A DNA stretch of 57,179 nucleotides from Flavobacteriaceae bacterium (GTDB lineage: Bacteria > Bacteroidota > Bacteroidia > Flavobacteriales > Flavobacteriaceae): assembly GCA_016780245.1 (NCBI GenBank), contig JADHME010000003.1, forward strand, positions 1-57,179, written 5' to 3'. Positions 7,045 through 49,640 of this stretch are shown in pieces (position 1 is the first letter of the stretch; every line of letters begins with the position of its first letter). A model generated the notes under the pieces. It was not told where the DNA came from, did no database searches, and worked only from the letters and a program-made list of their open reading frames with translations. A program made the translations under genes and the position numbers.

Positions 7045-7093
7045 AAAATTTTTAGAAATATATTTTACATATCATTTATATTATACTTTCCTC

Positions 7094-7666: not shown

Positions 7667-7677
7667 AGGGAAAAATT

Positions 7678-8874: not shown

Positions 8875-8884
8875 ATCATGATTC

Positions 8885-32423: not shown

Positions 32424-32424
32424 G

Positions 32425-32970: not shown

Positions 32971-32972
32971 TA

Positions 32973-34196
32973 ATGAAATGTAGACACTGTAACTCTAAAC
33001 TAGAAAATGAGTTTATCGATCTAGGCGATGCACCTCCTTCAAATAACTATGTTTCTCAAGATAAGTTAAAACTTCAAGAGAGATCTTATCCATTAAGAGT
33101 CATGGTTTGTAGTAATTGCTGGCTAGTTCAAACTGAGGATTTTAGTGATGCTGATGAGCTATTTACTGATGAATATGCATATTTTTCTTCTACATCAATA
33201 AGTTTCCTTGAACATGCTAAAAATTATGTAAGTGAAATTACTAAATTTTTAAAGCTTAATCAGAATTCTCTTGTTGTAGAATTAGCATCAAATGATGGTT
33301 ATTTATTGAAAAATTTTGTTGAATTAGGTATTCCATGTCTTGGAATAGAGCCAACAAAAAGCACTGCAAATGTTTCTAGACAAAAAGGTATTGAAACTAT
33401 TGAAGAATTTTTTGGAAGAGATTTTGCAAAAAAACTCAGTCAAGACAAAAAAGCTGATTTAATTATTGGAAATAATGTTTATGCGCATGTTCCTGATATA
33501 AATGATTTTACTGCAGGTATTAAAGAGCTTCTATCTCCAAACGGAACTGTAACGCTTGAATTCCCACATTTAGTTGAATTAGTTCAAAACAATCAATTCG
33601 ATACAATTTATCATGAGCATTATTCTTATCTATCCTTATTTTCAGTCTCACAAATATTTAATAAGGCTGGATTAAAAATCTATAAAGTAGATAAACTTCA
33701 AACTCATGGGGGAAGTCTAAGAATCTATGGATGCCACAAAGAAAATAATATGTTGATAGATGAATCTTATAATGACCTTATCAATAAGGAAATAAAATTG
33801 GGTATCAATGATATTAATTTTTATAAGAACTTTAATAAAATAGCTGAAAAAATTAAAGATGAGTTTTATAAATTTCTCATAGATTGCAAAGAAAAAGATT
33901 TATTTGTGTGTGCATACGGGGCAGCCGCAAAAGGCAATACATTATTGAATTATTGCGGGATTAAAGACAATTTAATAAAATTTGTTTGTGATGCAGCAGA
34001 GGCCAAACAAAATAAATTTTTGCCAGGATCAAAAATACCTATTGTCCACCCTGATGTTTTAAAAAATCAAAAAAAAATTGACTTTGTTATCATATTCCCC
34101 TGGAATATAGCGGATGAGGTTACAGCCAAATTAGATTATCTAAAAGCAAATGGCACAAAATTTGTAATAGCCATACCAAAGCTTACTATCATATAG
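32973..34196 (+). CDS. NDP-hexose C-methyltransferase (TylC3-like)
   Basis: 407 residues in three parts. The N-terminal Cys cluster (CRHC near residue 3, CSNC near 46) is the putative zinc-binding domain. SAM-binding VVELASNDGYLLKNF is near residues 103-117. The C-terminal domain includes YHEHYSYLS, containing the conserved HEHxxY, and LQTHGGSLRIY. This architecture is that of sugar 3-C-methyltransferases such as TylC3. With rfbF and rfbG upstream and a reductase downstream it should produce a branched 6-deoxyhexose on CDP. The exact carbon methylated cannot be read from the sequence. Confidence 0.87.
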   Translation: MKCRHCNSKLENEFIDLGDAPPSNNYVSQDKLKLQERSYPLRVMVCSNCWLVQTEDFSDADELFTDEYAYFSSTSISFLEHAKNYVSEITKFLKLNQNSLVVELASNDGYLLKNFVELGIPCLGIEPTKSTANVSRQKGIETIEEFFGRDFAKKLSQDKKADLIIGNNVYAHVPDINDFTAGIKELLSPNGTVTLEFPHLVELVQNNQFDTIYHEHYSYLSLFSVSQIFNKAGLKIYKVDKLQTHGGSLRIYGCHKENNMLIDESYNDLINKEIKLGINDINFYKNFNKIAEKIKDEFYKFLIDCKEKDLFVCAYGAAAKGNTLLNYCGIKDNLIKFVCDAAEAKQNKFLPGSKIPIVHPDVLKNQKKIDFVIIFPWNIADEVTAKLDYLKANGTKFVIAIPKLTII

Positions 34197-35117
34197 ATGA
34201 ATTTATTAATTACTGGAGCTTCGGGTTTTATAGGAAGACATCTAATTAATCTACTTGATAGAGATGATAAATACAAAATTCATGCAATTTATAATCAAAA
34301 AAAACCTATTAAAGGATTAAAAAATACTATTTGGTATAAGCTAAATCTTTTTAATTGCGATGAAGTAGAGTTATTAATAAAAGAAATACAACCAACGCAT
34401 ATTGTTCATCTAGCTTGGTATACAGAACATGGAAAATTTTGGAATTCAGAAAAAAATGAAGACTGGAAGAATGCTTCAATTAAATTATTTCAGATATTTA
34501 AGAAGTATGGCGGAAAGCGTTTTATTTCTTCAGGAACTAAAGCAGAATATTTTGATGGCGAATTTTTAGATGATTATCAAGACTCTACCTTCGAATGTTA
34601 TGAATTAGATAAACCAAATCCTGATAGTATTTATGGAGAATACAAGAATTTACTTAATATGCAATTAAATGAGATTGATAAAAAGGGAAATAGAAGCTTG
34701 GTTTGGGCCAGAATTTTTGACACTTATGGTCCTTATGAAAACGAAAAAAAATTTTGTTCATACGTAATAAAGAACTGCATTAATCAAAAAAAGATAACTT
34801 GCAATAATCCACACTTGGGCATGGACTTTCTTCATGTTCAAGATATTGCTGAAGCATTTAAATTTATTATAGACAGAGATTTCCTTGGAACAATAAACAT
34901 CTCGTCTGGTAGTTCATGCACACTAGAATATATTTCAAAATATATTACAAAGAAATTTAATAGTGAAGAGTTGCTTGAGCTCAATAACTCAAGCAATGAT
35001 AGAAGAAATTTTTTTGGTAATAATACTATTTTAAAGAATCTTGGATGGCGTAATAAATATTCAATTAAGGATGGCCTTGATGACTTAATTAAATTTTATG
35101 TAAAAAAATATGAATAA
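34197..35117 (+). CDS. NAD(P)-dependent sugar reductase/epimerase (probable 4-ketoreductase of the CDP cassette)
   Basis: 306 residues, extended SDR. ITGASGFIGRHLI is the coenzyme loop, HLAWYTEHGKFW is unlike the UDP-galactose epimerase group, SSGTKAEYF and YGEYKNLLN give the catalytic Ser/Thr and YxxxK, and FDTYGPYE follows. It starts at the base after the methyltransferase stop and overlaps the next gene by 8 bases. By position it is best read as the enzyme that reduces the 4-keto group after C-methylation. This is inference; the fold is clear. Confidence 0.8.
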   Translation: MNLLITGASGFIGRHLINLLDRDDKYKIHAIYNQKKPIKGLKNTIWYKLNLFNCDEVELLIKEIQPTHIVHLAWYTEHGKFWNSEKNEDWKNASIKLFQIFKKYGGKRFISSGTKAEYFDGEFLDDYQDSTFECYELDKPNPDSIYGEYKNLLNMQLNEIDKKGNRSLVWARIFDTYGPYENEKKFCSYVIKNCINQKKITCNNPHLGMDFLHVQDIAEAFKFIIDRDFLGTINISSGSSCTLEYISKYITKKFNSEELLELNNSSNDRRNFFGNNTILKNLGWRNKYSIKDGLDDLIKFYVKKYE

Positions 35118-36156
35118 ATTAAAAATAGGGTATTGGCCTAATTCATTAACATTTGATGCTCCAGGAGATAGAAGGCGCTTTATTTTTTACGCAGAAAATA
35201 AAAAAATAGATTTTGAATTATTTAAACTTGGTAAGAAATATGATTTAGTTTACTTGTCTCAAGCAGCTGATATTTCCCTTATAAAAGAGTTCAAGAAGAC
35301 TGGTGCTAAAATTTTTTATGACAATATTGATTCATATTCTTCAGACTCACAGTCTATTAGATCAAAATTAAGAGGAGTGGCTAAATTTCTTAACCGGTCA
35401 AGTAAATACCTAATTTTCAATAATACAAAATTCTTAAATGAACATTTTTTACCTTCAGTAGATGCGGTTGTATGCGCATCTGAAGAACAATCAGAAATTG
35501 CAAGAAATTTTTCTTCAAATGTTTTCTGTATACCTGATCATACTCACAATGAAAAAGTTTCTATTAAGGAAGATTATTTCTCAACTGATACTATAAATAT
35601 TGGCTGGGAGGGTTTGGGCTCAAACGTATACCAGTTAAAGGCTTTAAAAAATGTATTCAAAGAATATTCTAAAACACATAAATTTAATCTTCATGTTATA
35701 AGTGATAAAACCTCATATAAATTTATGAACAAATATATTAGTATAAATAATGAAAAGAACATAAAGGACTTATGCGATAACATCATTTTTCATGAATGGA
35801 ATAATGAGACATATTCATCTAATCTTGCTTCTTGTGACATAGCAATAATCCCAATAAATCTAGAAAGTAAGATGGCATCAGGCAAACCTGAAAATAAACT
35901 AATACATTTATGGAAAATGGGCATGCCCGTAATTACTTCAAACACAAATAGTTACAAACGAGTGATGGATAAGTGTGGTGTGCACTTAGTATGTAACTCA
36001 GAAAATGACTGGATCAATAACTTAAGATTATTATCTGATAATTATGAACTGAGACGGAAAATAGGAAAAAAAGTTTATAATTATGCTAATAATTATTATG
36101 GCGCAACCGCTGTTATTGAGAGATGGGACTCAATGTTTAATCAAATTTTTAAATGA
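35110..36156 (+). CDS. GT-B type glycosyltransferase
   Basis: 348 residues. No signal peptide. The C-terminal half looks like a GT4/GT1 donor domain: DTINIGWEGLGSN, then IIFHEWNNETY, ASCDIAIIPIN and the ESKMASGKPENKLI loop, where a Lys/Glu pair normally binds the donor nucleotide and phosphates. The N-terminal half includes IFYDNIDSY and AVVCASEEQ. It follows the CDP-branched-sugar genes directly (8-base overlap), so it may transfer that sugar. It overlaps the GNAT gene by ATGA. Confidence 0.75.
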   Translation: MNKLKIGYWPNSLTFDAPGDRRRFIFYAENKKIDFELFKLGKKYDLVYLSQAADISLIKEFKKTGAKIFYDNIDSYSSDSQSIRSKLRGVAKFLNRSSKYLIFNNTKFLNEHFLPSVDAVVCASEEQSEIARNFSSNVFCIPDHTHNEKVSIKEDYFSTDTINIGWEGLGSNVYQLKALKNVFKEYSKTHKFNLHVISDKTSYKFMNKYISINNEKNIKDLCDNIIFHEWNNETYSSNLASCDIAIIPINLESKMASGKPENKLIHLWKMGMPVITSNTNSYKRVMDKCGVHLVCNSENDWINNLRLLSDNYELRRKIGKKVYNYANNYYGATAVIERWDSMFNQIFK

Positions 36157-37112
36157 TAGATTATAGAAAATACAATCATATTGATGACTATGATGCTTAT
36201 AAACGTTTTTGTGAAAAAAATTTTGGCAAAAAGTGTTATCAATCTAAAATCGACCATATAGAATGGCTTGAATCTAATAAATACCATTTTATTAATTTAG
36301 CTGTTTCAGACAGTGAGATTATTGGCTGCTTTCATGGCTTTAAAGCACCTGTAAAAATTAATAATGAAACTCAATTCTTTTATTCTCTGCATGACTTAAT
36401 GGTTGATAAGGAATACGGTACACAAATCGGCCTTAAGCTTATGCAGGCTGTTATATTTCAGGATAAGCCGGTGATTCTCTCAGGAGCAATAGGAAGAATT
36501 TCTAGAGCATACAAAAGACTTGGATCTACTCAATTTCAGTCTCATTGGTATAGAAAGTTTATAGTTCCATATAATCCATTAAGGTTTTTCTTTCTTGATA
36601 AGAATTTCATTAAACTGAGCCAAAACAAAATGAAATTTAATTTTATTAATAATAAAGAGGAAGATTCAAGAATCATTATAGAATCTATAATAAACGCTTA
36701 TGAATATGATGATGATTTTTCAAGAGAATTTTTTGAATGGAGATATTTTCAGACCAATTCTCCGTTAACTTTTTTCACATATGACAGTAGTTTTAAAAAT
36801 ATCATAAAATTTTCTATTGGTTTGAGAGGATTTATACCGTTTTTAAGAATAATATCTGTTAGCAAAGATAATGATAAAATTTTTTTACATCTTTTGAAGT
36901 CTATTGAAGATTTCGCTTCAAGAATTGGGATTCCTGTTATCTTGTATTCAATTACCGAAAATATTTTACCCCCTAAAGAACTTAAATTTAATGAATATAA
37001 AGATATACCTAATTCATTTGTATTTTCAAAAAAAAGAAATCTTTTAAATAATTTCTCTATAACCATAAATGGTTTTTCGACTGACTTAGGTTTTGACAGC
37101 ATGTTTTTATAA
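36153..37112 (+). CDS. GNAT-superfamily acyltransferase
   Basis: 319 residues, longer than a single GNAT domain. An N-terminal GNAT-like region has IIGCFHG on strand 4, then YSLHDLMVDKEYGTQIGLKLMQAV, where the QIGLKL turn occupies the acyl-CoA phosphate loop. The second half may be a degenerate repeat. Such proteins in glycan loci transfer acyl groups to amino sugars. The acyl carrier module starting at 38856 makes an acyl-ACP donor conceivable, but this is speculative. It overlaps the upstream glycosyltransferase by 4 bases. Confidence 0.62.
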   Translation: MIDYRKYNHIDDYDAYKRFCEKNFGKKCYQSKIDHIEWLESNKYHFINLAVSDSEIIGCFHGFKAPVKINNETQFFYSLHDLMVDKEYGTQIGLKLMQAVIFQDKPVILSGAIGRISRAYKRLGSTQFQSHWYRKFIVPYNPLRFFFLDKNFIKLSQNKMKFNFINNKEEDSRIIIESIINAYEYDDDFSREFFEWRYFQTNSPLTFFTYDSSFKNIIKFSIGLRGFIPFLRIISVSKDNDKIFLHLLKSIEDFASRIGIPVILYSITENILPPKELKFNEYKDIPNSFVFSKKRNLLNNFSITINGFSTDLGFDSMFL

Positions 37113-37120
37113 AGGAATTA

Positions 37121-38023
37121 ATGAAAAGAACTAATAAAGGCATCGTGACATTGTCATTTGACTGTGAAGCAAAATGGGGTATGGCAGATTTAAGCCTTAA
37201 TTGGACTAAAGAACTAACCGATAAAAATTTAGTTGAGGTATATGAATACATTTTAGAAATTCTTAAAAAATATAATATACCTTCTACTTTTGCTTTTGTA
37301 GGAGCCATGACAGAGACAAAAGATAGTTTTTTAGCTCAAACCAAACCCTTAATGAATGGTCCTAATCATAAAACATGGCTTAAACCAATATATAGTCAAT
37401 TAACAGAAAGCGATGAAGGATGGTTTTTCCCAAATCTTATTAATCTTTGCAAAAAACATCATATGCATGAAATTGCTTCACATGGATACACGCATATTCC
37501 ATTTAGCAGTCTTACAGATGAAGAAGTTGTTGAAGAGATGAAGCTAATAAAAGATTGGTCATTGAGAAATGAACTTAACTGTAAGACATTAATATTTCCT
37601 AGAAATGATATTAATTTTTCTGAGATACTGAATAGATACGATATTCAATTGTACAGAAATCTACCAAAACTTATTGACATTAAATACTTACCAAAATATG
37701 TAAATACTTTTTTGGAAGAATTAAATGTTTTTAAAAAAAGTGAAGAATTAAATATTGATAAATTATGTATCCCAGGTGGTGTTTTTATAAACTGGAAGTA
37801 TGGACCAAGGAAGATCATACCAAAAGCCATTTCTAATATAAGATATAAAAATATCATAAACGATGCCATAAAAAGAAATAGAGTAGCTCATTTTTGGACA
37901 CATCCACATAACTTTATAACCGCCCCAGATTCAAAAAAAATATTTGAAAGGCTGTGCCAAGAAATTCAGAACAAAGTTGAATCTAATGAATTAGAAATTT
38001 GCAGGCAAGTTGATTTCATCTAA
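37121..38023 (+). CDS. Polysaccharide deacetylase family protein (NodB fold, cytoplasmic)
   Basis: 300 residues with no signal peptide. TLSFDCEAKWG at residues 10-20 is NodB motif 1 with the metal Asp, SHGYTHIPF near 124 is motif 2 with the two metal His, and FPRND and HFWTHPHNF correspond to later active-site motifs. Members remove acetyl groups from N-acetylated sugars. Absence of a secretion signal suggests action on precursors inside the cell. Its last 8 bases overlap the 3' end of the minus-strand gene at 38016-38780. Confidence 0.82.
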   Translation: MKRTNKGIVTLSFDCEAKWGMADLSLNWTKELTDKNLVEVYEYILEILKKYNIPSTFAFVGAMTETKDSFLAQTKPLMNGPNHKTWLKPIYSQLTESDEGWFFPNLINLCKKHHMHEIASHGYTHIPFSSLTDEEVVEEMKLIKDWSLRNELNCKTLIFPRNDINFSEILNRYDIQLYRNLPKLIDIKYLPKYVNTFLEELNVFKKSEELNIDKLCIPGGVFINWKYGPRKIIPKAISNIRYKNIINDAIKRNRVAHFWTHPHNFITAPDSKKIFERLCQEIQNKVESNELEICRQVDFI

Positions 38024-38780
38024 AGTTATCTATCAGTTTACTTGTAAACAAATAAATGCTGTTCAATACCAATCTCATTAAATGAATAAACGTTATTTTT
38101 CTATATCTATTATTGAGGTCCAAGAAAAAAAATTCTCCTCCTGATCTAACATTACTTTCACCCAAATCATAAATAGGTATTTTTAACTTCCATGAGCAAT
38201 AATTTAAAGCAAGTTGATCTCTTTTCGCTTCTTTTGAATATTCTTTCCAACAATTATGAAGTAATTCTCTAGAGTTTTCGTTATTCTTGCATATTATTAT
38301 ATTGTTTTCGAATAGACCTCTATCTTCAGGATATAGTTCCTTTGAATATCTTTTCATTTGTTTTCTTATTCTCCAAAACCAATCTAGAGAGTCCTCAATG
38401 CATTTTTTGCCTTCATCATAAATAGACTCTCTTTCAAAATGTCTAAATAGAAATATATCTTCATCTTTTACATAGATTTTATCTACGAGATCTGAAATAT
38501 GATTAATGATTTCTATATTGCCGTCTATATAAATGCTTATGTCATGCGAAGGAAGAAATTCACTTGGATGAAATTTGACGTACCTATTTTTATCTTTATT
38601 TGAAAAGTTATCTAGGCCATTTATGGGTTGCATAATCCAACCATAAGGAACATTTTGAGAAGAATCAGTAAAAAAAATATATTTTATTTTTTTTTCTAAA
38701 TTTTTATGATGTATTAATTTCTCATATTTCCCAGTCACGCAAGAGTAAACAACTATTTTCTTATTTGTTATATTTAGCAT
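38016..38780 (-). CDS. DUF616-type putative glycosyltransferase
   Basis: 254 residues on the minus strand. KKIVVYSCVTGKYE is the typical start of this family, followed by YIFFTDS, KNRYVKFHPSEF and YIDGNIEI, whose Asp takes the DxD position. RHFERESIYDEG and a late KRDQLALNY segment also fit. It converges on and overlaps the deacetylase by 8 bases, and its promoter must lie in the 75-base gap (38781-38855) before the acyl carrier gene. It is one of only two leftward genes in the window. The sugar transferred is unknown. Confidence 0.72.
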   Translation of the reverse strand: MLNITNKKIVVYSCVTGKYEKLIHHKNLEKKIKYIFFTDSSQNVPYGWIMQPINGLDNFSNKDKNRYVKFHPSEFLPSHDISIYIDGNIEIINHISDLVDKIYVKDEDIFLFRHFERESIYDEGKKCIEDSLDWFWRIRKQMKRYSKELYPEDRGLFENNIIICKNNENSRELLHNCWKEYSKEAKRDQLALNYCSWKLKIPIYDLGESNVRSGGEFFFLDLNNRYRKITFIHLMRLVLNSIYLFTSKLIDNFR

Positions 38781-38855
38781 GTAATAAAGATTTATATGAT
38801 GGTATTTCCACTGTTAAATTATTATAATTACATTTTTTTTAAAAGGAATTATTTC

Positions 38856-39080
38856 ATGCAAGACAAACTCATTGAATTAATAGCTGAGGCTTTAGAAATT
38901 GATAAAACTGAAGCTGAGAATGATCTTATACTTGATCCTGAAGATAATTGGGACTCTATTGCATTACTATCTGTAATTGCATCTATTGATGAGGAGTTCA
39001 ATATACAATTAGATGGCGATAAGCTTGCTGAATGTAAATCAATCCTAGAAATATTAAAACTCTTAGAAGAAAATTCTTGA
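38856..39080 (+). CDS. Acyl carrier protein
   Basis: 74 residues from the ATG at 38856, which has a clean AAGGAA ribosome site 5-10 bases upstream; an earlier in-frame ATG at 38796 would add a hydrophobic, unconvincing extension. The acidic four-helix pattern and the NWDSIALLSVI segment identify it: the Ser of DSI receives the 4'-phosphopantetheine arm. It is not embedded in a fatty-acid operon. Instead it begins a set with a phosphopantetheinyl transferase, a FabG-like reductase, a methyltransferase and a KAS III, all overlapping or nearly so. This points to a dedicated acyl group for the glycan. Confidence 0.9.
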   Translation: MQDKLIELIAEALEIDKTEAENDLILDPEDNWDSIALLSVIASIDEEFNIQLDGDKLAECKSILEILKLLEENS

Positions 39081-39664
39081 GTGTAACCTTTTTAGACTTA
39101 TCAAAAGATAGTTCGTTTTTTGTATTATTAGGCTCAAGAAAACATTTATCGACTTTTTACAACATAAAAAATTTTTTTAATTTTTTTGAGCTAGTTTTCT
39201 CCCCATTTATTAGCAAAAGACTATGTCAGAACCGTTATTTTCAAACCAGATCACTTATTCTAAAAGAATTAAAAAATATGAACATTAATCCTTCAGATAT
39301 CAAGATCTCAATGTCTCATAATAAAGATGATTTTGTTGCACTTATATCAAAAAAAGATACAAATATGGCAATTGATTTTGAGCAAACTAACAGAAAGATT
39401 TCTTATGCATTGGATGTTAAAATCTCTCAATTACAAAAACCCGATTCCTTATCATCACTAGGATTTATAAATATGATAGAAACATTGGTTAAAATCACAA
39501 ATAAAAAATGGTTTTACTTAATAGAAAATGTTGAAATAAAAAAAATGCTTAATTTCAAGGATGTTTATAAGGTAAATTTTGAAAATGAAACTATATATTC
39601 CAGATTCTATAGCTATAATGGCAATCAAATCTGTATAAGTTCATATAAGTCTGAGGTTTTGTAA
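39077..39664 (+). CDS. Divergent 4'-phosphopantetheinyl transferase (Sfp-like)
   Basis: 195 residues with a probable TTG start overlapping the ACP stop (TTGA). The Sfp-family landmarks are present in order: SMSHNKDD (residues 78-85, His after the Ser), MAIDFEQ (Asp100 and Glu102 as the metal-binding DxE pair) and FINMIETLVKI (Glu135 and Lys139, spaced as in the WxxKExxxK motif). The protein is shorter than Sfp (~225) and the first ~60 residues are not recognisable. It should attach phosphopantetheine from CoA to the neighbouring ACP. Coupling to the ACP gene strongly supports this. Confidence 0.72.
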   Translation: MSVTFLDLSKDSSFFVLLGSRKHLSTFYNIKNFFNFFELVFSPFISKRLCQNRYFQTRSLILKELKNMNINPSDIKISMSHNKDDFVALISKKDTNMAIDFEQTNRKISYALDVKISQLQKPDSLSSLGFINMIETLVKITNKKWFYLIENVEIKKMLNFKDVYKVNFENETIYSRFYSYNGNQICISSYKSEVL

Positions 39665-40341
39665 TGATAGTTTTAACTGGCGCATCTGGAGGAATCGGTA
39701 CTGAAATTATAGGGGATTTATCTAAATTAGATGATGTTTTAGCAATTTATAACACAACTAAACCAAAGAACATTAATCTTCCAAATGTTTCTTTTCGAAA
39801 AGTTGATATTTCTGATCCTGTAGAGATAAAAAGTTTTGTTGATAAAGAAGGCTTATATTTGAAAAATATATCATTAATAAATATGGCTGCTGTCTCTATT
39901 GATGGCTTATTAGCTAATTATGATTTAGAAAATTGGGAGAAAGTTATGAAAATTAATCTAATTTCAAATTTTCTTTTATCTAAATATTTATTACCAAAAA
40001 TGATTAAGGATAAATGGGGAAGAATCATACATGTCTCTTCTACCAACTCTGCGATAGGTGCAGGAGCATATTCGTCTTCAAAATCGGGATTAGATGGCTT
40101 ATCCAAGGCATTATCAAAGGAGTATGGAAGATATAACATTACATCAAATATCATCAAATTAGGCGTATTTAATAGTGGTATGTTTCATCAACTATCAAAA
40201 AAGAATCAAAAAATATTTCTTGAAAAAATTCCATCAAAAAATATAGGAAAAACATCTAATATAACTAATGCAATTTCTTTCCTAATTAGTTCTGAGTTTG
40301 TAAATGGAGCATCAATAACCATTGACGGAGGAGCATCGTAA
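39664..40341 (+). CDS. FabG-like short-chain reductase (3-oxoacyl-ACP reductase type)
   Basis: 225 residues, classical SDR. VLTGASGGIG is the TGxxxGIG coenzyme loop, INMAAV is the NAG-equivalent strand, IHVSSTNSAIGAGAYSSSK provides the Ser-Tyr-Lys catalytic set, and ASITIDGGAS ends the protein as in FabG. Beside an ACP and a KAS III, reduction of a 3-ketoacyl-ACP to 3-hydroxyacyl-ACP is the simplest reading. The ATG overlaps the previous stop by 1 base. Confidence 0.85.
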   Translation: MIVLTGASGGIGTEIIGDLSKLDDVLAIYNTTKPKNINLPNVSFRKVDISDPVEIKSFVDKEGLYLKNISLINMAAVSIDGLLANYDLENWEKVMKINLISNFLLSKYLLPKMIKDKWGRIIHVSSTNSAIGAGAYSSSKSGLDGLSKALSKEYGRYNITSNIIKLGVFNSGMFHQLSKKNQKIFLEKIPSKNIGKTSNITNAISFLISSEFVNGASITIDGGAS

Positions 40342-40345
40342 GTTT

Positions 40346-41071
40346 ATGCAATCTAAAAATCATAGTGTTAAAATTTTAAAAAATATGACCCTTGATATTA
40401 CTTTAGGAAGTGGTGTATTTGAACCAACTGGAACCTCCACTGAGATTGCAAAGGCAGTATGCAACCATATTATATCTCCAGGTAAAACACTTGATCTTGG
40501 ATGTGGCTCAGGAGTTGTGGGGTTGGCTTTAGCAAAAGCTAAGAAAATTAAAGGAAAGTTATATGCATCTGATCTTAGCAAAGATGCTGTAAAGTTTTTA
40601 AAAATTAATGCTGATAGATATGATATAGATGTTGATGCTAGGCCAGGAAGTATTTTTGATCCATGGAAGGATGAAAAATTTGATTATATTATCGATGACA
40701 TATCAGGAGTTGCTAAAAGAATAGCTGAGATATCTCCTTGGTTTAAAGAAACGGCATGTGATGCAGGTGAAGATGGTGCTGCACTTGTAATAGATGCTAT
40801 TGAAAAATCTCCTAATTACTTGAATCCTAATGGAAAATTTTTTTTCCCAATCTTATCGTTATCAAATTCAGATATTATATTAATTAAAGCTAATGAGACA
40901 TATAAAAATGTTGATAAATTATCATCTCACAAGTGGAGAATACCTGAAGACATGATGAGTCATCATGAAGAACTATTTGAATTAAAAAGAGAGAAAAAAA
41001 TATATTTTGAAGAAAAATACGGTTGGCTATTATGGTCAACTGATGTATTTGTTGCATACAACCCAAGGTAA
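40346..41071 (+). CDS. SAM-dependent methyltransferase (small-domain/PrmC-like)
   Basis: 241 residues from the ATG at 40346; an in-frame TTG at 40322 would overlap the reductase gene. LDLGCGSGVVGLAL is SAM motif I, LYASDLSKDAV motif II, and FDYIIDDISGVA occupies the position of the NPPY motif of PrmC-type enzymes, replaced here. GEDGAALV follows. Because NPPY is needed for amide-nitrogen methylation, a different target, such as the acyl chain or a sugar hydroxyl, is likely. It lies between the FabG-like and KAS III genes with no gap to the latter. Confidence 0.78.
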   Translation: MQSKNHSVKILKNMTLDITLGSGVFEPTGTSTEIAKAVCNHIISPGKTLDLGCGSGVVGLALAKAKKIKGKLYASDLSKDAVKFLKINADRYDIDVDARPGSIFDPWKDEKFDYIIDDISGVAKRIAEISPWFKETACDAGEDGAALVIDAIEKSPNYLNPNGKFFFPILSLSNSDIILIKANETYKNVDKLSSHKWRIPEDMMSHHEELFELKREKKIYFEEKYGWLLWSTDVFVAYNPR

Positions 41072-42094
41072 ATGATGTTCATGAAATCTTTTATAGATAA
41101 AATCGAATTTTTTGTACCATCTAACAAGCTATCTAATAAGATGCTTGCAGAGGTAAATCCTTCATGGGATGTTGAAAAAATTTATGAAAAGACTGGAATC
41201 AAAAATAGATTTATTGCCAATTCAAATGAAACTGCTACAGATTTAGCAGTAGAAGCTGGAAAAATTTTTTTACAAAAGTATCCTGAAAAAAAACAAGAAA
41301 TTGATTATTTGATTTTTTGTACTCAGTCCCCAGATTATTTTTTGCCTACATCTGCATGCCTCATTCAAGATCGCTTGGAATTAAGAACTGAGATAGGGGC
41401 TATTGACGTAAATCAAGGGTGTTCTGGTTTCGTATATGCTCTTTCATTAGCTAAAGGCATGATAGAAAGTAATCAAGTCAGAAATGTATTAATAATTACT
41501 GCAGAAACTTATTCTAAATACATCAATGACAAGGATAAAAGTGTCAGAACTCTTTTTGGTGATGCAGCATGCTGCACTTTTGTTAATTCTAGGGACATTA
41601 AAGAAGATTATATTTCAAATATTATTCATGGAACTGATGGAAAAGGGGGAGAGCATCTTATAGTGCCCCATGGTGGACATAAGAATCCAATTGATGATAC
41701 TTCATATTTAGAGCTTGAAGACGATAGAAAAAATGTAAGATCGCCAGCTAATTTATATATGAATGGTAGTGCAATAATGACATTTACATTAGTAAAAATA
41801 CCAAAAGTATTTAATCAAATCCTTCAAGCTAACAATATGACCATTGATGATGTTGACGTAGTTATTTTTCATCAGGCTAACAAATTTATACTTGATGGAA
41901 TCCAGAGAAAGCTAAAAATACCTGAATGTAAAATGCACAGATCTTATGAAAACTATGGAAATACTGTCTCATCAACAATTCCAATTGGAATTAAGATCGA
42001 ACAAGATCTTAAAAAAGATAATGAAAAGAAAACTGCTCTTATTCTTGGATTTGGTGTCGGTCTTTCATGGGCAGGGACAATAATTAAATTTTAA
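41072..42094 (+). CDS. 3-oxoacyl-ACP synthase III-like ketosynthase
   Basis: 340 residues, thiolase-fold KAS III. The catalytic triad is visible: Cys117 in DVNQGCSGFVYAL, His in VIFHQANKF and Asn in YENYGNTVSS. RTLFGDAACC and LGFGVGLSWAGTII are also typical. KAS III starts chains by condensing acetyl-CoA or another acyl-CoA with malonyl-ACP. With the ACP and reductase upstream it could make a short 3-hydroxyacyl unit such as 3-hydroxybutyryl. Three nearby ATGs (41072, 41075, 41081) could be the start. It closes the acyl module; 11 bases follow before the next gene. Confidence 0.88.
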   Translation: MMFMKSFIDKIEFFVPSNKLSNKMLAEVNPSWDVEKIYEKTGIKNRFIANSNETATDLAVEAGKIFLQKYPEKKQEIDYLIFCTQSPDYFLPTSACLIQDRLELRTEIGAIDVNQGCSGFVYALSLAKGMIESNQVRNVLIITAETYSKYINDKDKSVRTLFGDAACCTFVNSRDIKEDYISNIIHGTDGKGGEHLIVPHGGHKNPIDDTSYLELEDDRKNVRSPANLYMNGSAIMTFTLVKIPKVFNQILQANNMTIDDVDVVIFHQANKFILDGIQRKLKIPECKMHRSYENYGNTVSSTIPIGIKIEQDLKKDNEKKTALILGFGVGLSWAGTIIKF

Positions 42095-42105
42095 AAAAAT
42101 ATAAC

Positions 42106-43389
42106 TTGAAAAAATTAAATTACAAAATATCAGTATCGGGCTTAGGCTATGTTGGATTGCCTGTTTTGATAGCTTTCTCAAAAATAGATAAAGTAATTGG
42201 TTTTGATATCAATACCCAAAGAATAAGTGATTTATCTAGTGGTAAAGATAAAAATAATGAAGTTAAAGCAGAGGATTTAATTAATCCGAATATTTTATTT
42301 TCTAATAATATAGAAGATATAAAAAAGGCGAACTTTCATATAGTTGCTGTGCCAACACCAGTTAGTGTTAATAATGATCCTGATTTAAGGCCCCTTATTT
42401 CAGCATCTGAAAAGATAGCTTCAGTCTTAAAAAAAGGAGATATTGTTGTTTATGAATCAACAGTATATCCTGGCGTCACTGAAGAAATATGTATTCCAAT
42501 TCTAGAAGAGAAATCTTCTTTGCAATTAGGAGTTGATTTCAAAGTTGGCTATAGCCCAGAAAGAATAAATCCTGGAGATCATGAGCATACTATTTCTAAT
42601 ATTGTTAAAGTTGTTTCAGGATCTGACGATGATTGTTTAGAAGCGGTTGCAGATATTTATAGCAAAATTGTTAAAACTGGGATATTTAGGGCCGCTTCTA
42701 TTAAAACAGCAGAAGCAGCCAAAGTTATTGAGAATACTCAAAGGGACATTAACATAGCATTGATCAATGAGCTTTCCCTAATTTTTAAAAAACTAGATAT
42801 TGATACTTCAGAAGTTCTTGAGGCTGCAAATACTAAATGGAATTTTCTAGATTTTAAGCCTGGTCTTGTCGGTGGTCATTGTATAGGTGTAGACCCATAT
42901 TACCTTACATATAAATCTAGGCTTCATGGTTACGAGCCTCAGGTTATTCTTGCTGGCAGAAAAATCAATGATCATATGGCTCATTATATTTCTAATCAAA
43001 TCATTGAAGAGATAAATGGACTACCAATAAAAGAACCCTCAGCAACAATTTTGGGGGTAACTTTTAAAGAAGATTGCCCAGACATGAGAAACTCCAAGGT
43101 ACTGGATATTATAGATAATTTAAAAGCAGCAAAGATTAATATTCAAATTAGCGATCCGATTGTATCACTTGAAGAAGTTGTAGAATCTACTGGAATAGAA
43201 TTGACCAAAATAGAAAATTTAAAACCTTCAAATATATTAGTTTTAGCAGTTGCTCATAATCAATTTAAGGAATTAGATAGATATGCTATTAAAAAATTAC
43301 TTAAAGACGGTGGGTCTATCTATGACTTAAAAAATGTTTTCAAAAAAGATTATTTCATTAAAGAAGAAATAAAACATTGGAAGCTATAA
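42106..43389 (+). CDS. UDP-N-acetylhexosamine 6-dehydrogenase (TviB/WbpO-type)
   Basis: 427 residues beginning at TTG, the only plausible start near the conserved N-terminus. VSGLGYVGLPV is the NAD loop. VAVPTPVSVNNDPDLRPL, YESTVYPGVTEE, YSPERINPGD and VGGHCIGVDPYYL (catalytic Cys) are the signatures of dehydrogenases that oxidise UDP-GlcNAc or UDP-GalNAc to the uronic acid. The NDPDLRPL stretch favours the TviB/WbpO subgroup. A second, more divergent dehydrogenase is at 44577. Confidence 0.88.
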   Translation: MKKLNYKISVSGLGYVGLPVLIAFSKIDKVIGFDINTQRISDLSSGKDKNNEVKAEDLINPNILFSNNIEDIKKANFHIVAVPTPVSVNNDPDLRPLISASEKIASVLKKGDIVVYESTVYPGVTEEICIPILEEKSSLQLGVDFKVGYSPERINPGDHEHTISNIVKVVSGSDDDCLEAVADIYSKIVKTGIFRAASIKTAEAAKVIENTQRDINIALINELSLIFKKLDIDTSEVLEAANTKWNFLDFKPGLVGGHCIGVDPYYLTYKSRLHGYEPQVILAGRKINDHMAHYISNQIIEEINGLPIKEPSATILGVTFKEDCPDMRNSKVLDIIDNLKAAKINIQISDPIVSLEEVVESTGIELTKIENLKPSNILVLAVAHNQFKELDRYAIKKLLKDGGSIYDLKNVFKKDYFIKEEIKHWKL

Positions 43390-43402
43390 ATTTGTCAGGA
43401 AC

Positions 43403-44593
43403 ATGAAGAAAGTTTTAAGAATTCTGAATAGATTTAATATTGGAGGCCCAACACATAATGCAACATATTTGACAAAGTATTTGCATCCCGAATTCCAAAC
43501 TAAGCTCATTGCAGGAAAAAAACTTGATTCTGAGGAAAGTTCTGAATATATGCTAAAGGATTATGAAATTAATTTTGAAATTATTGAGGATATGAGTAGA
43601 TCGATTAATCTAATCAAGGATTTAAAATCTTTTTTTAAAATTAAAAAAATTATTAAAGAATTTAAACCAGATATTGTACATACTCACGCTTCAAAATCTG
43701 GCGCACTTGGGAGGTTAGCTGCAATAACTTCAGGAGTGCCAATAATTGTTCATACTTTTCACGGTCACGTATTTCATTCGTATTTTGGTAGACTTAAAAC
43801 AAAGTTTTATATTTTTCTTGAAAGGTATTTAGCTAAAAAATCATCAGCAATAATTGCTATCAGTAATCTTCAAAGAAAAGAGCTTGTAAATGAATTTAAG
43901 ATTTGTTCAAAGAATAAAATACATACAATTCCTTTAGGTTTTGATTTAGAAAAATTTCAAAAACAAGATTTTTTGAAAAGAAATGAATTTAGAGATGAGT
44001 TCAATCTAAATAAGAATGATATTGCTATAGGGATAATTGGTCGATTGACACCAATAAAAAATCATTCGTTTTTCTTAAGGTCAATAAAAATTTTATTAGA
44101 AGATAGCTCAAGAAAATTTAAAGTATTTATAGTTGGAGATGGTGAGGATAGATTAGCTTTAGAGAGTTTATGCACTCAATTAGATTTAAGATTTAATGCT
44201 GAGGGTGTAGAGGACCCCATTATCTATTTTACATCTTGGAGAAAAGACATTGATAGAGTTTATGCTGGAATTGATATAGTGGCATTGACTTCAAAAAATG
44301 AAGGTACTCCTGTAACATTGATTGAGGCACAAGCATCAAATAAACCAATAGTATCAACAGATGTTGGAGGTGTATTGGATGTTGTTAAAAATAATATCAC
44401 AGCATTTGTTTCGGATAAGTATGACTATAATGTATTCTCCAATAATTTAAGAAAGCTCGTAGAGAATGATTCTTTAAGAGTAAAAATGGGTAGTGCGGGC
44501 TACAGTCATGTATCAGAGCTATTTAGTTATCATAGACTTGTAAAAGACGTTAGAAAATTATACAAAAATCTTTTGAATGAAAAAAATATCTAA
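43403..44593 (+). CDS. Glycosyltransferase family 4
   Basis: 396 residues. NRFNIGGPTHN at the N-terminus is the GT4 glycine loop, HTHASKSGALGR and HTFHGHVF line the acceptor site, GIIGRLTPIKNH opens the donor domain, and SKNEGTPVTLIEAQ is the EX7E motif. Retaining transfer from a UDP or GDP sugar is expected. This subgroup (HASKSGALGRLAA) is common as an early-acting transferase in capsule and O-antigen loci. It overlaps the next gene by 17 bases. Confidence 0.9.
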   Translation: MKKVLRILNRFNIGGPTHNATYLTKYLHPEFQTKLIAGKKLDSEESSEYMLKDYEINFEIIEDMSRSINLIKDLKSFFKIKKIIKEFKPDIVHTHASKSGALGRLAAITSGVPIIVHTFHGHVFHSYFGRLKTKFYIFLERYLAKKSSAIIAISNLQRKELVNEFKICSKNKIHTIPLGFDLEKFQKQDFLKRNEFRDEFNLNKNDIAIGIIGRLTPIKNHSFFLRSIKILLEDSSRKFKVFIVGDGEDRLALESLCTQLDLRFNAEGVEDPIIYFTSWRKDIDRVYAGIDIVALTSKNEGTPVTLIEAQASNKPIVSTDVGGVLDVVKNNITAFVSDKYDYNVFSNNLRKLVENDSLRVKMGSAGYSHVSELFSYHRLVKDVRKLYKNLLNEKNI

Positions 44594-46076
44594 AAATCCA
44601 ATCACTAATAAGGATTACTTTATTCCAGATGTACTCGATGATGGTGCTTCTCTTAAAGAGTTTACAGAAGAACACCCTGATAAACCTATTATTATAGTTC
44701 AAGGTCTTGGTTTCGTTGGGTCTGTAATGTCTTTGGTATGTGCTAATGCCATTAATGGAGATTATGCAGTAATAGGAGTTGATCTTCCAACGGAAGAATC
44801 ATATTGGAAAATAGCTTCTATAAATGATGGTTTTTTTCCTGTTGTATCATCTGATCCAAAAGTCAAAGCTTATTTTGAAGAAGCAAGAAAGAAAAGGAAT
44901 TTTTATGCAACATATGATAATTATGCATATCAACTAGCCGATGTAATTATTGTTGATATTAATTTAGATGTTCAAAAAGAATCAACTCCATTTGGCAATT
45001 TGATAGATTATAAAGTCGATTTGTCCTCCTTTAAATCTGCAATTAGGGCCATAGGCAAGAATGCAAAAGAAAAGGTTTTAATTTTAGTAGAAACAACAGT
45101 CCCGCCTGGTGCTACAAAGCTTGCTGCTGAAATTATTGATAAAGAATATTCTAAAAGAGGAATATCTTCAGAGAATGTATCAATTGGCCATTCTTATGAG
45201 AGAGTCATGCCAGGACCAAACTATATTGATTCTATTCAAAATTTTTTCAGAGTATATGCAGGTGTTGATGATAAAAGTGCAAATGAAATAGAGAGTTTTC
45301 TTAGAACCATTATAAAAACTGATGAGTATCCATTAACGAGATTGGGCAATACTAACGCAACTGAAATTTCAAAAGTTCTAGAAAATTCATATCGTGCAAT
45401 GAATATCTCATTTATAGTTGAGTGGTCAAGATTTGCTGAAGAGGCAGGAGTAAATCTTTATGAAGTTATTAATGCAATAAGAATGAGGACTACCCATAAA
45501 AACATAATGTTGCCAGGAATAGGAGTTGGTGGATACTGTTTAACAAAGGATCCTCTATTGGCTAGCTGGGCAAGACAAAATCTTATTAATGCAGATAATG
45601 ATATGTTGGCTATGAGTGAAATGGCTGTTAGAACAAATGATAAAATGCCATTACATGCATTTGAATTTTTAGAATCATTCTATGGAAAAGAAAAGCTAAA
45701 GGGCAAGAAAATACTTTTATATGGGGTGTCATATTTAGCAGGGGTTGGCGATACAAGATATACTCCTGTTGCAAACTTTTATAAATTATTAATTGAACAT
45801 GAGTCTATCATTTCATTGCATGACCCATATGTTAGTTTTTGGGAAGAATTTAATCTTAATATAAGTCAAGATATCAATAGTTTTGATGAAGAAACAAATA
45901 TAGTAATTTTCACTACTGGACATACAGAATATAAAAATAATAAAAATTTGATAACTAATTTAAATAATCAAGAAGACTTATATATCTATGACACCATAGG
46001 AATTCTTAGTGAAGATGAGATTAGTTTTTTATCAAAAAAACATGTCGTTAAAGTTTTAGGCAGAGGTGATATCTAA
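44577..46076 (+). CDS. Nucleotide-sugar dehydrogenase with extended N-terminus
   Basis: 499 residues, longer than the usual ~430. About 35 residues precede the Rossmann loop IIVQGLGFVGS. LVETTVPPGATKLA, GHSYERVMPGP and GVGGYCLTKDPL (catalytic Cys) are clear UDP-glucose/GDP-mannose dehydrogenase elements, and GVSYLAGVGDTRYTP is the C-terminal UDP-binding domain. The sequence around the active Cys differs from both the ugd fragment at the left edge and the TviB-like protein at 42106, so a third substrate is likely. The following epimerase gene (11 bases on) may act on its product. Confidence 0.83.
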   Translation: MKKISKNPITNKDYFIPDVLDDGASLKEFTEEHPDKPIIIVQGLGFVGSVMSLVCANAINGDYAVIGVDLPTEESYWKIASINDGFFPVVSSDPKVKAYFEEARKKRNFYATYDNYAYQLADVIIVDINLDVQKESTPFGNLIDYKVDLSSFKSAIRAIGKNAKEKVLILVETTVPPGATKLAAEIIDKEYSKRGISSENVSIGHSYERVMPGPNYIDSIQNFFRVYAGVDDKSANEIESFLRTIIKTDEYPLTRLGNTNATEISKVLENSYRAMNISFIVEWSRFAEEAGVNLYEVINAIRMRTTHKNIMLPGIGVGGYCLTKDPLLASWARQNLINADNDMLAMSEMAVRTNDKMPLHAFEFLESFYGKEKLKGKKILLYGVSYLAGVGDTRYTPVANFYKLLIEHESIISLHDPYVSFWEEFNLNISQDINSFDEETNIVIFTTGHTEYKNNKNLITNLNNQEDLYIYDTIGILSEDEISFLSKKHVVKVLGRGDI

Positions 46077-46087
46077 AGGTTTAAAAA

Positions 46088-47110
46088 ATGAAGAAAGTAA
46101 TAATTTTAGGTGGAGCGGGTTTTATTGGATTAAATATTGCGAAATATTTAATTACAAAGAAAAACTATAAAATTACTATCGCTGATAATCTCTCACGAGG
46201 AAAAATGGATTCCTATTTAGAGGAAATTATTTCATATGAAAATGTTGATTTTATTGAAGGTGACTTCACAAAAAAATCTTCCTTTAAAAGTCTCAATACC
46301 GATTATGATTATTGTTACATGCTTGCATCAGTTGTGGGAGTCAATAATACACTTAAGATTCCTAGTGAGATAATAAGAATTAATACTTTGTTAATTCTTA
46401 ATACTCTTGAATGGTTAAAAATAGGGGCAGCCAAAAATGTTGTTTTCACATCAACAAGTGAAAACTACGCAGGAACAATTGATAAATTTGGTTATACTAT
46501 ACCCACTCCTGAAGATATACCATTATCTATTATAGATATCTCTCATCCAAGATATACATATGCAGTAACAAAAATGCTTGGAGAATCAAGTTTTTTAAAT
46601 TATTCAAAATCATATGGTTTTAATTGCACTATTGTTAGATATCACAATGTAATAGGACCAAGAATGGGATTTAAACATGTTATACCCCACCTTGCAGAAA
46701 GATTTTTAGTGAATAAAGAAAATCCTTTTTTAATGTATGGACACGATCAAACAAGAGCCTTTTGTCATATCACTGATGCGGTTGAAGGAACAGTTCTAGC
46801 TTTAGAATCTGATAAATCAAATGGTGAGATCTTTCATATAGGAACAGAAGAGGAAATAACTATTGAAGAGTTAATAAAAACTACTGGTAGTTTTTTTAAT
46901 TATGACGGAACCTATAAAGAAGCTCAAACATTTCCAGGATCAACAAACAGAAGATGTCCTGACATATCAAAAGCAAGAAATTTGCTCGGCTATAACCCAA
47001 GATTTAAATGGCAAGAATCCTTAGAGGCCACTCTTGAATGGTATGAGGATTTCTTTCAAAAAGGTGAAACAGCGTTTGAAACCTCATTTGAAGATCCAAC
47101 TAATGTATAG
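46088..47110 (+). CDS. NAD-dependent epimerase/dehydratase/decarboxylase family protein
   Basis: 340 residues, extended SDR. ILGGAGFIGLNIA is the NAD loop, YMLASVVGVNN the second strand, FTSTSENYAG recalls the TSTSEVYG of UDP-glucuronate decarboxylases, and YTYAVTKMLGE has YxxxK. HNVIGPRMGFKHV and TRAFCHITDA also resemble that group. A decarboxylase or 4-epimerase for the uronate made by the dehydrogenase upstream is plausible. It overlaps the initiating transferase gene by 8 bases. Confidence 0.8.
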   Translation: MKKVIILGGAGFIGLNIAKYLITKKNYKITIADNLSRGKMDSYLEEIISYENVDFIEGDFTKKSSFKSLNTDYDYCYMLASVVGVNNTLKIPSEIIRINTLLILNTLEWLKIGAAKNVVFTSTSENYAGTIDKFGYTIPTPEDIPLSIIDISHPRYTYAVTKMLGESSFLNYSKSYGFNCTIVRYHNVIGPRMGFKHVIPHLAERFLVNKENPFLMYGHDQTRAFCHITDAVEGTVLALESDKSNGEIFHIGTEEEITIEELIKTTGSFFNYDGTYKEAQTFPGSTNRRCPDISKARNLLGYNPRFKWQESLEATLEWYEDFFQKGETAFETSFEDPTNV

Positions 47111-47768
47111 CATAACTAAAAGGATGTTAGATATATCAACTGCATTCATTACTCTTATTTTATTAACCCCCTTGTTTATACCAATTATTTTAATATTAAG
47201 GTTTACAGGCGAAGGAGAAGTATTTTATTTTCAGGAAAGAGTGGGCTTAGATAATAAGACTATTAAAATATTTAAGTTTGCTACCATGCTTAAAAATAGT
47301 GAAAAAATAGGAACAGGGATATATACAGCTAAAAATGATCCAAGAATTCTCCCTTTTGGTAATTTTTTAAGAAAAACTAAAATTAATGAGTTGCCGCAAA
47401 TTATTAATATATTAAATGGTGACATAAGCTTAGTTGGGCCGAGGCCACTAATTAGAAAAACATTTGAGCTATACAAAGAAGAAGATCAAAAAATAATATA
47501 CTCAATTAAGCCAGGATTAACTGGTATAGGGTCTATTGTTTTTAGAAATGAAGAGGAAATATTAAATAATGCTGAGATGGAATTAGAAGAGTTCTATAAA
47601 AACTATATTACTCCATACAAAGCTGAACTGGAATTATGGTATGTAAAAAATAAATCATTTTTACATGATTTAAAAATTATATTTCTTACAGCTTGGGTAA
47701 TATTATTTAAAGATTCAAAACTACCATGGGCTATATTTAAAGGCTTGCCAAAAAGAGATCAAATTTAA
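47103..47768 (+). CDS. Initiating phosphoglycosyl transferase (bacterial sugar transferase, PglC/WcaJ core)
   Basis: 221 residues from the ATG at 47103. Residues ~13-33 form one hydrophobic re-entrant or membrane segment. FYFQERVGLD, IKIFKFATM, DPRILPFGNFLRKTKINELPQ and LNGDISLVGPRPL are the family core. The transferase attaches the first sugar phosphate to undecaprenyl phosphate. The usual catalytic Asp-Glu in DELPQ reads Asn95-Glu96, and the common KFRSM Arg is Ala60. It has only the catalytic core, as in PglC, not the large WcaJ form. The stop overlaps the next ATG (TAATG). Confidence 0.87.
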   Translation: MYSITKRMLDISTAFITLILLTPLFIPIILILRFTGEGEVFYFQERVGLDNKTIKIFKFATMLKNSEKIGTGIYTAKNDPRILPFGNFLRKTKINELPQIINILNGDISLVGPRPLIRKTFELYKEEDQKIIYSIKPGLTGIGSIVFRNEEEILNNAEMELEEFYKNYITPYKAELELWYVKNKSFLHDLKIIFLTAWVILFKDSKLPWAIFKGLPKRDQI

Positions 47769-49056: not shown

Positions 49057-49082
49057 TAGAGTTAGCAATTTTAAAATTAATT

Positions 49083-49274: not shown

Positions 49275-49276
49275 TT

Positions 49277-49624: not shown

Positions 49625-49640
49625 TTTTTTCTTATCTTAA

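What the first reader, a model, noticed from the sequence alone, without database searches (positions are those of the whole stretch)
38856..42094. Self-contained acyl module (ACP, its own PPTase, FabG-like reductase, methyltransferase, KAS III) inside a glycan locus
Seen: five adjacent genes, with stop/start overlaps at the first two junctions. They carry ACP DSI, PPTase DxE and ExxxK, SDR Ser-Tyr-Lys, SAM motif I and the KAS III Cys-His-Asn triad. Known: KAS III plus ketoreductase on an ACP can yield short 3-hydroxyacyl chains, and 3-hydroxybutyryl groups occur on amino sugars and nonulosonic acids. Inference: the set makes a 3-hydroxyacyl or methylated acyl group for the polysaccharide. A dedicated activator PPTase implies the ACP is not served by the housekeeping enzyme. 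I know of no described glycan locus with this exact five-gene set.
Basis: partly seen in the sequence, partly recalled or inferred. Interest (0 to 1): 0.8.

Follow-up and report, generated by a model that had tools for sequence, protein, structure and literature searches.

The report
Acyl-making gene set in glycan locus
A marine bacterium of the SAR86 group appears to carry its own small set of genes for making a short, possibly methylated acid and attaching it to a surface sugar; the core of this set is known from other bacteria, but here it comes with a probable carrier-activating enzyme and a sugar deacetylase/acyltransferase pair.

Summary
The five genes are real: ACP, a weakly supported Sfp-like PPTase, FabG-like SDR, SAM methyltransferase, and KAS III with intact Cys-His-Asn. 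The core is not new. Of 80 KAS III relatives from many phyla, 44 have ACP and SDR nearby and at least 57 have glycan-type genes. Published loci come close: Flavobacterium psychrophilum wfpC-G and the Pseudomonas syringae viosamine island (ACP, KAS III, reductase, methyltransferase). Unusual are the PPTase-like gene (a clear homologue in 1 of 203 SAR86-order genomes) and the absence of a hexapeptide (NeuD/VioB-type) acyltransferase among 57 window proteins scanned. Instead a GNAT and a NodB-like deacetylase gene precede the ACP; GNAT, deacetylase, ACP and KAS III also cluster, rearranged, in two other SAR86 loci. I infer a deacetylate-then-reacylate route, like NodB/NodA in logic only, that puts a short 3-hydroxyacyl, perhaps methylated, group on an amino sugar. 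The contig is SAR86-type DNA inside a Flavobacteriaceae bin, so statements about 'its own genome' do not apply. New variant of a known kind.

The parts
36153..37112 (+). GNAT-family protein, candidate acyl-ACP:amino-sugar N-acyltransferase
   Evidence: Pfam Acetyltransf_1 22.0 bits, cut-off 20.7; homologues clustered with the deacetylase, ACP and KAS III in L195, L083 and L232, though the L083 one is below cut-off and the L232 one has no Pfam match
37121..38023 (+). NodB-like polysaccharide deacetylase, candidate that frees the acceptor amine
   Evidence: Pfam Polysacc_deac_1 1.1e-10; FDxE, SHGYxH, FPRN and HPHN stretches conserved; homologues in 4 of 203 SAR86-order genomes
38016..38780 (-). 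TOD1/MUCI70-like glycosyltransferase, co-occurring
   Evidence: PF04765 24.2 bits, cut-off 21.4; homologues in L083 (9e-59) and L232 (4e-21)
38856..39080 (+). acyl carrier protein (DSI motif)
   Evidence: PF00550 5.9e-7; alignment A3
39077..39664 (+). divergent Sfp-type phosphopantetheinyl transferase (probable)
   Evidence: motif pattern in 65 of 200000 shuffles; hhalign P=3.1e-4, probability 39% against 3 Sfp-type proteins; third of 1487 ORFs, behind a training Sfp and an AcpS
39664..40341 (+). FabG-like SDR ketoreductase
   Evidence: adh_short 1.1e-31; best NCBIfam match 3-oxoacyl-ACP reductase, below its cut-off
40346..41071 (+). SAM methyltransferase, HemK-like, with DDISG where PrmC has NPPY (NPPY recalled)
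   Evidence: homologues beside KAS III, SDR and ACP in 5 SAR86-order genomes
41072..42094 (+). KAS III (beta-ketoacyl-ACP synthase III), C116-H266-N296
   Evidence: PF08545/PF08541; best PDB sequence match 3gwa 9e-90; alignment A1

Best explanation
A SAR86 surface-glycan acylation module. The ACP is converted to its holo form, probably by the adjacent Sfp-like protein (inferred). KAS III condenses a short acyl-CoA, most simply acetyl-CoA, with malonyl-ACP (inferred from an intact catalytic triad). The SDR reduces the product to a 3-hydroxyacyl-ACP, most simply 3-hydroxybutyryl (inferred). The methyltransferase methylates the acyl chain or, less likely, the acceptor sugar (inferred). The NodB-like deacetylase exposes an amino group on an N-acetylated sugar and the GNAT protein transfers the ACP-borne acyl group to it (inferred from conserved clustering; not shown). 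Confidence in parts: short 3-hydroxyacyl group for sugar N-acylation about 0.7; transfer by the GNAT/deacetylase pair about 0.4; 39077 as a true PPTase about 0.7; methylation of the acyl chain rather than the sugar about 0.55.
For: All five genes are conserved in order in G621 with dN/dS 0.10-0.23. KAS triad intact. Of 80 named KAS III loci, 44 have ACP and SDR within 5 kb and at least 57 have a glycan or DegT homologue in the fetched stretch. The methyltransferase lies with KAS III, SDR and ACP in 5 of 203 SAR86-order genomes (G621 and four others with different acceptor genes). GNAT, deacetylase, ACP and KAS III cluster in window/G621, L083 and L232, in different orders. None of 57 window proteins scanned with Pfam matched the hexapeptide family (one end-cut frame at 56307 not scanned). 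Published: P. syringae vioR loss removes modified viosamine, vioM loss removes one methyl (PMC3927599 passages); F. psychrophilum wfp genes (PMC6519341 passages).
Against: The GNAT/deacetylase link rests on three locus types in one order. The fourth deacetylase homologue (L233) has no GNAT, ACP or KAS III homologue in its 19.9 kb stretch, and 79 of 80 named KAS III loci lack the pair. In L232 the KAS III is only 32% identical, the GNAT homologue has no Pfam match and the deacetylase part is below cut-off. L083 and L232 have no SDR or methyltransferase homologue in the stretch. The deacetylase scores far below the NodB model (16.7 against 240 bits). In P. syringae the methyl is assigned to the sugar, and VioM could not be compared here. 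PPTase membership is weak by sequence; the only NCBIfam hit of the 39077 protein is ParC (E=0.0011, 17.4 against 813 bits), an E-value no worse than its Sfp-profile match (0.0033); its AF2 model is unusable (pLDDT 38).
Confidence: 0.5

Rival explanations
1. Viosamine-island type in all but layout: the acyl group goes to a 4-amino-4,6-dideoxy sugar made by a DegT aminotransferase elsewhere in the locus, and the methyltransferase methylates the sugar (as proposed for VioM), not the acyl chain.
For: P. syringae has ACP, KAS III, reductase and a 241-aa methyltransferase, and its vioM mutant loses one methyl from the terminal sugar residue (PMC3927599 passages). SAR86 loci L197 and L199 carry the same methyltransferase with a hexapeptide-family protein and a DegT homologue in the stretch. 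The window has two DegT genes at 3092 and 7678.
Against: The window DegT genes are about 31 kb away, inside a pseudaminic-acid-like set, and no hexapeptide-family protein was found among 57 scanned.
Confidence: 0.25
2. The 39077 protein is not a PPTase but an unrelated small protein, and a housekeeping AcpS activates the ACP.
For: No Pfam hit for it or its 98% identical relative in L195; no credible PDB sequence hit; best NCBIfam hit is ParC at E=0.0011; four related SAR86 sets have no such gene beside them; AcpS/Sfp-family match in 160 of 203 SAR86-order genomes.
Against: Sfp motif residues at Sfp-like spacing; hhalign P=3.1e-4 against Sfp-type proteins but 0.066 and 0.5 against GNAT and methyltransferase controls; ranked directly behind real PPTases among 1487 ORFs.
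Confidence: 0.28
3. KAS III acts as an acyltransferase on a sugar hydroxyl (CerJ-like, recalled) rather than as a condensing enzyme.
For: KAS III homologues can do this (recalled, no call).
Against: Cys-His-Asn triad intact in all 10 aligned sequences, and a ketoreductase gene is two genes upstream.
Confidence: 0.05
4. A decaying or transient gene set without a function.
For: Patchy: clear PPTase-like homologue in 1 of 203 SAR86-order genomes.
Against: dN/dS 0.10-0.23 for all five genes against G621, although the PPTase value rests on few changes; open frames and motifs in both genomes.
Confidence: 0.03

Closest known systems
Pseudomonas syringae viosamine island (vioA, vioM, vioT, vioS, vioB, vioR, acp; PMC3927599, passages seen)
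   Same: ACP, KAS III (VioS, 338 aa), 3-oxoacyl-ACP reductase (VioR) and a methyltransferase (VioM, 241 aa) in a glycan island; vioR and vioM mutants tie it to N-(3-hydroxy-1-oxobutyl)-2-O-methylviosamine.
   Different: VioA aminotransferase and VioB acetyltransferase in the island; no PPTase or deacetylase among its seven genes. Homology of VioM to the window methyltransferase not tested.
Flavobacterium psychrophilum O-PS genes wfpC-wfpG (PMC6519341, passages seen)
   Same: O-polysaccharide-specific ACP, KAS enzymes and ketoreductase in a glycan locus, proposed to make 3,5-dihydroxyhexanoyl for N-acylation of Qui2NAc4N.
   Different: Two KAS genes and a PglD-like acyltransferase; the word methyltransferase does not occur in the text searched, PPTase not searched.
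Burkholderia glumae BGR1 plasmid pBGF3 flagellar island (NZ_DQ996271.1)
   Same: vioA, KAS III (44% identical to the window's), ACP, SDR and acetyltransferase near flagellin and fliD.
   Different: Carries a Rieske protein; no PPTase, methyltransferase or deacetylase listed in the stretch, but that gene table is incomplete.
Rhizobial Nod-factor acylation (NodB, NodA, NodS: PMC5080398 passages; NodF, NodE, NodG recalled)
   Same: Logic: deacetylate a sugar, then N-acylate it from an ACP, with a SAM methyltransferase in the set.
   Different: No NodA or NodB family membership; KAS III rather than NodE-type KAS; likely short acyl chain; other glycan context.
SAR86 sets L196-L199 (this work)
   Same: Homologous methyltransferase (37-41% identity) beside KAS III, SDR and ACP; three of four among plain glycan genes (by window homologues).
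   Different: PhyH-type dioxygenase present (L196 by likeness); no PPTase-like gene; L197 and L199 have a hexapeptide-family protein.

Membership tests
ACP/KAS III/ketoreductase cassette for glycan N-acylation (viosamine-island / wfp type) | ACP with DSx serine, KAS III with Cys-His-Asn, FabG-like SDR close together | tested here: met
ACP/KAS III/ketoreductase cassette for glycan N-acylation (viosamine-island / wfp type) | lies in a glycan biosynthesis locus | tested here: met
   NeuB, DegT, Rml-type, UDP-sugar dehydrogenase, glycosyltransferase, sugar transferase, Poly_export and YjbH matches in the window
ACP/KAS III/ketoreductase cassette for glycan N-acylation (viosamine-island / wfp type) | NeuD/PglD/VioB-type hexapeptide acyltransferase in the locus | tested here: not met
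   no Hexapep match among 57 window proteins scanned; genes beyond the contig unknown
ACP/KAS III/ketoreductase cassette for glycan N-acylation (viosamine-island / wfp type) | sugar aminotransferase beside the cassette | tested here: inconclusive
   DegT genes at 3092 and 7678, about 31 kb away in a pseudaminic-acid-like set
ACP/KAS III/ketoreductase cassette for glycan N-acylation (viosamine-island / wfp type) | 3-hydroxyacyl amide on the glycan | not testable with these tools
   needs mass spectrometry
Sfp/AcpS phosphopantetheinyl transferases | Pfam ACPS (PF01648) above cut-off | tested here: not met
   no match for the window or L195 protein; the Sfp-type P0001 also falls below cut-off (15.3 against 25 bits)
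Sfp/AcpS phosphopantetheinyl transferases | SH, DxE and ExxxK motifs in order and spacing | tested here: met
   the pattern was written after seeing the protein
Sfp/AcpS phosphopantetheinyl transferases | Sfp fold | tested here: inconclusive
   AF2 single-sequence pLDDT 38
HemK/PrmC glutamine methyltransferases | NPPY motif (recalled) | tested here: not met
   DDISG, NDISG or NDVSG in the 6 aligned sequences
Nod-factor acylation enzymes | NodB equivalog score for the deacetylase | tested here: not met
   TIGR04243 16.7 bits, cut-off 240
Nod-factor acylation enzymes | NodA family acyltransferase | tested here: not met
   the 36153 protein matches GNAT and no NodA model

The most novel reading that the evidence does not exclude
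SAR86 bacteria remodel a surface glycan by a Nod-factor-like swap: a deacetylase removes N-acetyl, and a GNAT enzyme replaces it with a 3-hydroxy, methylated short acyl group built on a dedicated ACP that has its own divergent PPTase, a transfer route unlike the transaminase/hexapeptide route of the known cassettes.
Probability: 0.3. Interest if true: 0.62.

Novelty: new variant of a known kind. Interest (0 to 1): 0.45.

Why it matters
SAR86 is among the most abundant uncultured surface-ocean bacteria (recalled). Its glycans face phages and grazers, and I found no description of their acyl chemistry in one paper search (listing only). If right, this gives a testable enzyme set for an N-acyl decoration, links deacetylation to acyl-ACP-dependent N-acylation outside rhizobia, and defines a methyltransferase subfamily (DDISG motif) tied to acyl-glycan gene sets.

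Tried and rejected
Rejected: 'exact set unknown, so novel' (four of five gene kinds published together). Rejected: 'own genome lacks AcpS, so the PPTase is needed', because the contig does not belong to the Flavobacteriaceae bin and 160 of 203 SAR86-order genomes have a PF01648 match. PheT identity alone did not settle the origin: 34% at best in the bin's genus and 33% in SAR86 G488; synteny and G621 did. Rejected: methyltransferase as PrmC (motif differs; the window's bin and the relatives have other, PrmC-like copies). Not used as evidence: a PDB search with alignment A6 hit Sfp (3.4e-8), because three of its four rows are Sfp-type proteins. Led nowhere: viral-contig scan with KAS III (no relatives), plasmid searches with the methyltransferase and the PPTase-like protein (no match), paper searches (0 papers; nothing relevant seen in the listings), AF2 of the 39077 protein. 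A second AF2 job (GNAT) was not accepted: machine busy.
Full report
What is there. Searches confirm five consecutive + strand genes: ACP 38856-39080 (74 aa), 39077-39664 (195 aa), SDR 39664-40341 (225 aa), methyltransferase best started at 40346 (241 aa), KAS III 41072-42094. The first two junctions overlap (TTGA, TAATG). Pfam supports ACP, SDR, methyltransferase and KAS III above cut-offs. KAS III keeps Cys116, His266 and Asn296 in the 10 sequences aligned; its best PDB sequence match is 3gwa, named 3-oxoacyl-ACP synthase III (9e-90).

The PPTase label. Pfam, NCBIfam and PDB sequence searches give no PPTase match; the only NCBIfam hit is ParC at E=0.0011, 17.4 bits against a cut-off of 813. 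However S-H81, D100-x-E102 and E135-xxx-K139 occur in Sfp order; a pattern of that spacing, written after seeing the protein, appears in 65 of 200000 shuffles. In an alignment with three Sfp-type proteins (two over the PF01648 cut-off, one, P0001, below it) these residues are invariant. A profile comparison gives P=3.1e-4, probability 39%, against 0.066 and 0.5 for GNAT and methyltransferase controls. A profile of the same three run over 1487 ORFs of 120-320 aa ranks its own training member first, an AcpS (L161, named by eye) second, the window protein third (E=0.0033) and its L195 relative fourth (0.0055); the next is 0.45. The single-sequence AF2 model is useless (pLDDT 38). I call it a probable divergent Sfp-type PPTase.

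Where the contig comes from. The assembly G000 sits in a family shared with Flavobacterium genomes (G378 C16, 96276 bases, matches record L149, Flavobacterium sp. ALJ2). But the window carries pdxH-infC-rpmI-rplT-pheS-pheT, an order also seen, with thrS (by eye) and with pdxH in two fragments in L200, in SAR86-order stretches L194 and L200. G621, of the order of SAR86 cluster bacterium AG-447-A08 (G488), carries all 25 window genes from 30592 to 50363 in the same order (the two end ones cut by the contig or stretch), 91-100% identical in protein. In the bin's own genus 9 of 24 other genomes have a KAS III match at E<=1e-45, at best 34% identical. I conclude that it is SAR86-type DNA in the wrong bin. 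G621 could in principle share the fault; the synteny with L194 and L200 argues against that. PheT identity (33-34% to both sides) does not discriminate.

How common the set is. KAS III relatives at E<=1e-70 occur in 18 of 394 other genomes of the phylum sample (at most 5 candidates scored per genome). In the 18 fetched regions 17 have an ACP and 15 an SDR homologue, 0 the methyltransferase or the PPTase-like protein (phmmer E<=1e-3). Of these 80, 54 have an ACP and 57 an SDR within 5 kb of KAS III, 44 both; 45 have a DegT and 50 a hexapeptide acyltransferase homologue; 57 have a glycan or DegT homologue in the stretch of up to 10 kb each side; 0 have the methyltransferase or PPTase-like protein (also 0 at E<=0.05). 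Many are Flavobacterium, so they are not independent. The counts are lower bounds: several contigs are short, and at least two of the 23 negatives look like glycan loci by eye (L131, L140); others among them (L125, L162, L094) do not. A PPTase lies next to KAS III in at least 2 of the 80: Sfp-type in L148 and AcpS in L161.

SAR86 relatives. The methyltransferase has strong homologues (E<1e-40) in 5 of 203 SAR86-order genomes: G621, G569, G494, G651, G610. In all, 78 of 203 pass 1e-5: 21 have as best match a second family at 1e-15 to 1e-20 (I looked at 7 of the 21 regions; 5 show no glycan genes around, L200 and L206 do), and 52 have only weaker matches, probably PrmC, not examined. The five strong ones have KAS III and SDR beside the methyltransferase and an ACP. 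The four other than G621 also carry a PhyH-type dioxygenase (L197, L198, L199 by Pfam; L196 by likeness). L199 reads DegT, hexapeptide protein, methyltransferase, PhyH, ACP, KAS III, SDR: a viosamine-island-like set. A clear PPTase-like homologue is found only in G621; the other eight of nine hits at E<=0.01 are E>=5e-4 and partial, four of them with stops.

Window 36153 (GNAT) and 37121 (NodB-like deacetylase) lie upstream, with an oppositely directed gene (38016) between them and the ACP. A deacetylase homologue occurs in 4 of 203 SAR86-order genomes: G621, G488, G559, G576. In the first three a GNAT homologue, an ACP and a KAS III are clustered with it, in different orders and orientations, and a TOD1-like homologue is in the same stretch. 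The G559 members are distant: KAS III 32% identical, GNAT E=1e-17 without a Pfam match, deacetylase fused to a glycosyltransferase and below the Pfam cut-off. In G576 no GNAT, ACP or KAS III homologue was found in 19.9 kb. Among the 80 named loci only L083 (which is G488) has the pair. Clustering that survives rearrangement suggests one function: free an amine, then acylate it from the ACP.

Mechanism. Sequence support: ACP, condensing KAS III, ketoreductase, methyltransferase, GNAT and deacetylase families. Inferred: acetyl-CoA as primer, 3-hydroxybutyryl as product, site of methylation, transfer by GNAT, PPTase activity. The methyltransferase stays with the acyl genes while acceptor genes change, which favours the acyl chain; the P. 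syringae vioM phenotype (one methyl lost from the terminal sugar residue, PMC3927599 passages) favours the sugar. I could not compare VioM.

What is known. PMC6519341 (passages): wfpC to wfpG proposed to make and attach 3,5-dihydroxyhexanoyl. PMC3927599 (passages): seven-gene viosamine island with ACP, KAS III, reductase and methyltransferase; vioR and vioM tested by mutants there. PMC4875605 (passages): ACP and FabG genes in enterobacterial flagellin islands. Burkholderia glumae pBGF3: vioA, KAS III, ACP, SDR, acetyltransferase near flagellin. PMC5080398 (passages): NodB, NodA and NodS roles. Searches listed no paper that I recognised as describing a PPTase in a glycan locus (listings only), which is not proof of absence.

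Verdict. A real, conserved gene set; its core is a known kind. The PPTase-like gene and the GNAT/deacetylase pairing make it a new variant.

Noticed in passing
window 1-57179: The contig appears to be SAR86-type DNA in a Flavobacteriaceae bin, so the bin looks chimeric.
   Followed up: yes
window 49641-52267: PheS is only 241 aa (Pfam: catalytic core only) and PheT 634 aa with B3/4, B5, CLM and anticodon domains but no tRNA-binding domain match. Most other PheT frames seen are about 680-825 aa; G621 has the same 241-aa PheS. Possibly a reduced PheRS.
   Followed up: partly
window 441-10662: A pseudaminic-acid-like set: NeuB family twice, Polysacc_synt_2, DegT twice, GT28-C, GNAT and cytidylyltransferase genes (Pse names recalled).
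   Followed up: no
window 10671-13176: WbuX-type N-acetyl sugar amidotransferase with HisH- and HisF-like partners.
   Followed up: no
window 38016-38780: TOD1/MUCI70-family glycosyltransferase-like protein (PF04765) with homologues in three SAR86 locus types.
   Followed up: partly
L199:7769-12985: SAR86 set DegT, hexapeptide protein, methyltransferase, PhyH dioxygenase, ACP, KAS III, SDR, resembling the viosamine island plus a dioxygenase.
   Followed up: partly
L232:8129-10054: The deacetylase homologue is fused to a family-2 glycosyltransferase domain (641 aa).
   Followed up: no
L148:11001-11660 and L161:5735-6127: Other PPTase genes (Sfp-type, AcpS by eye) next to KAS III genes of this family.
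   Followed up: partly
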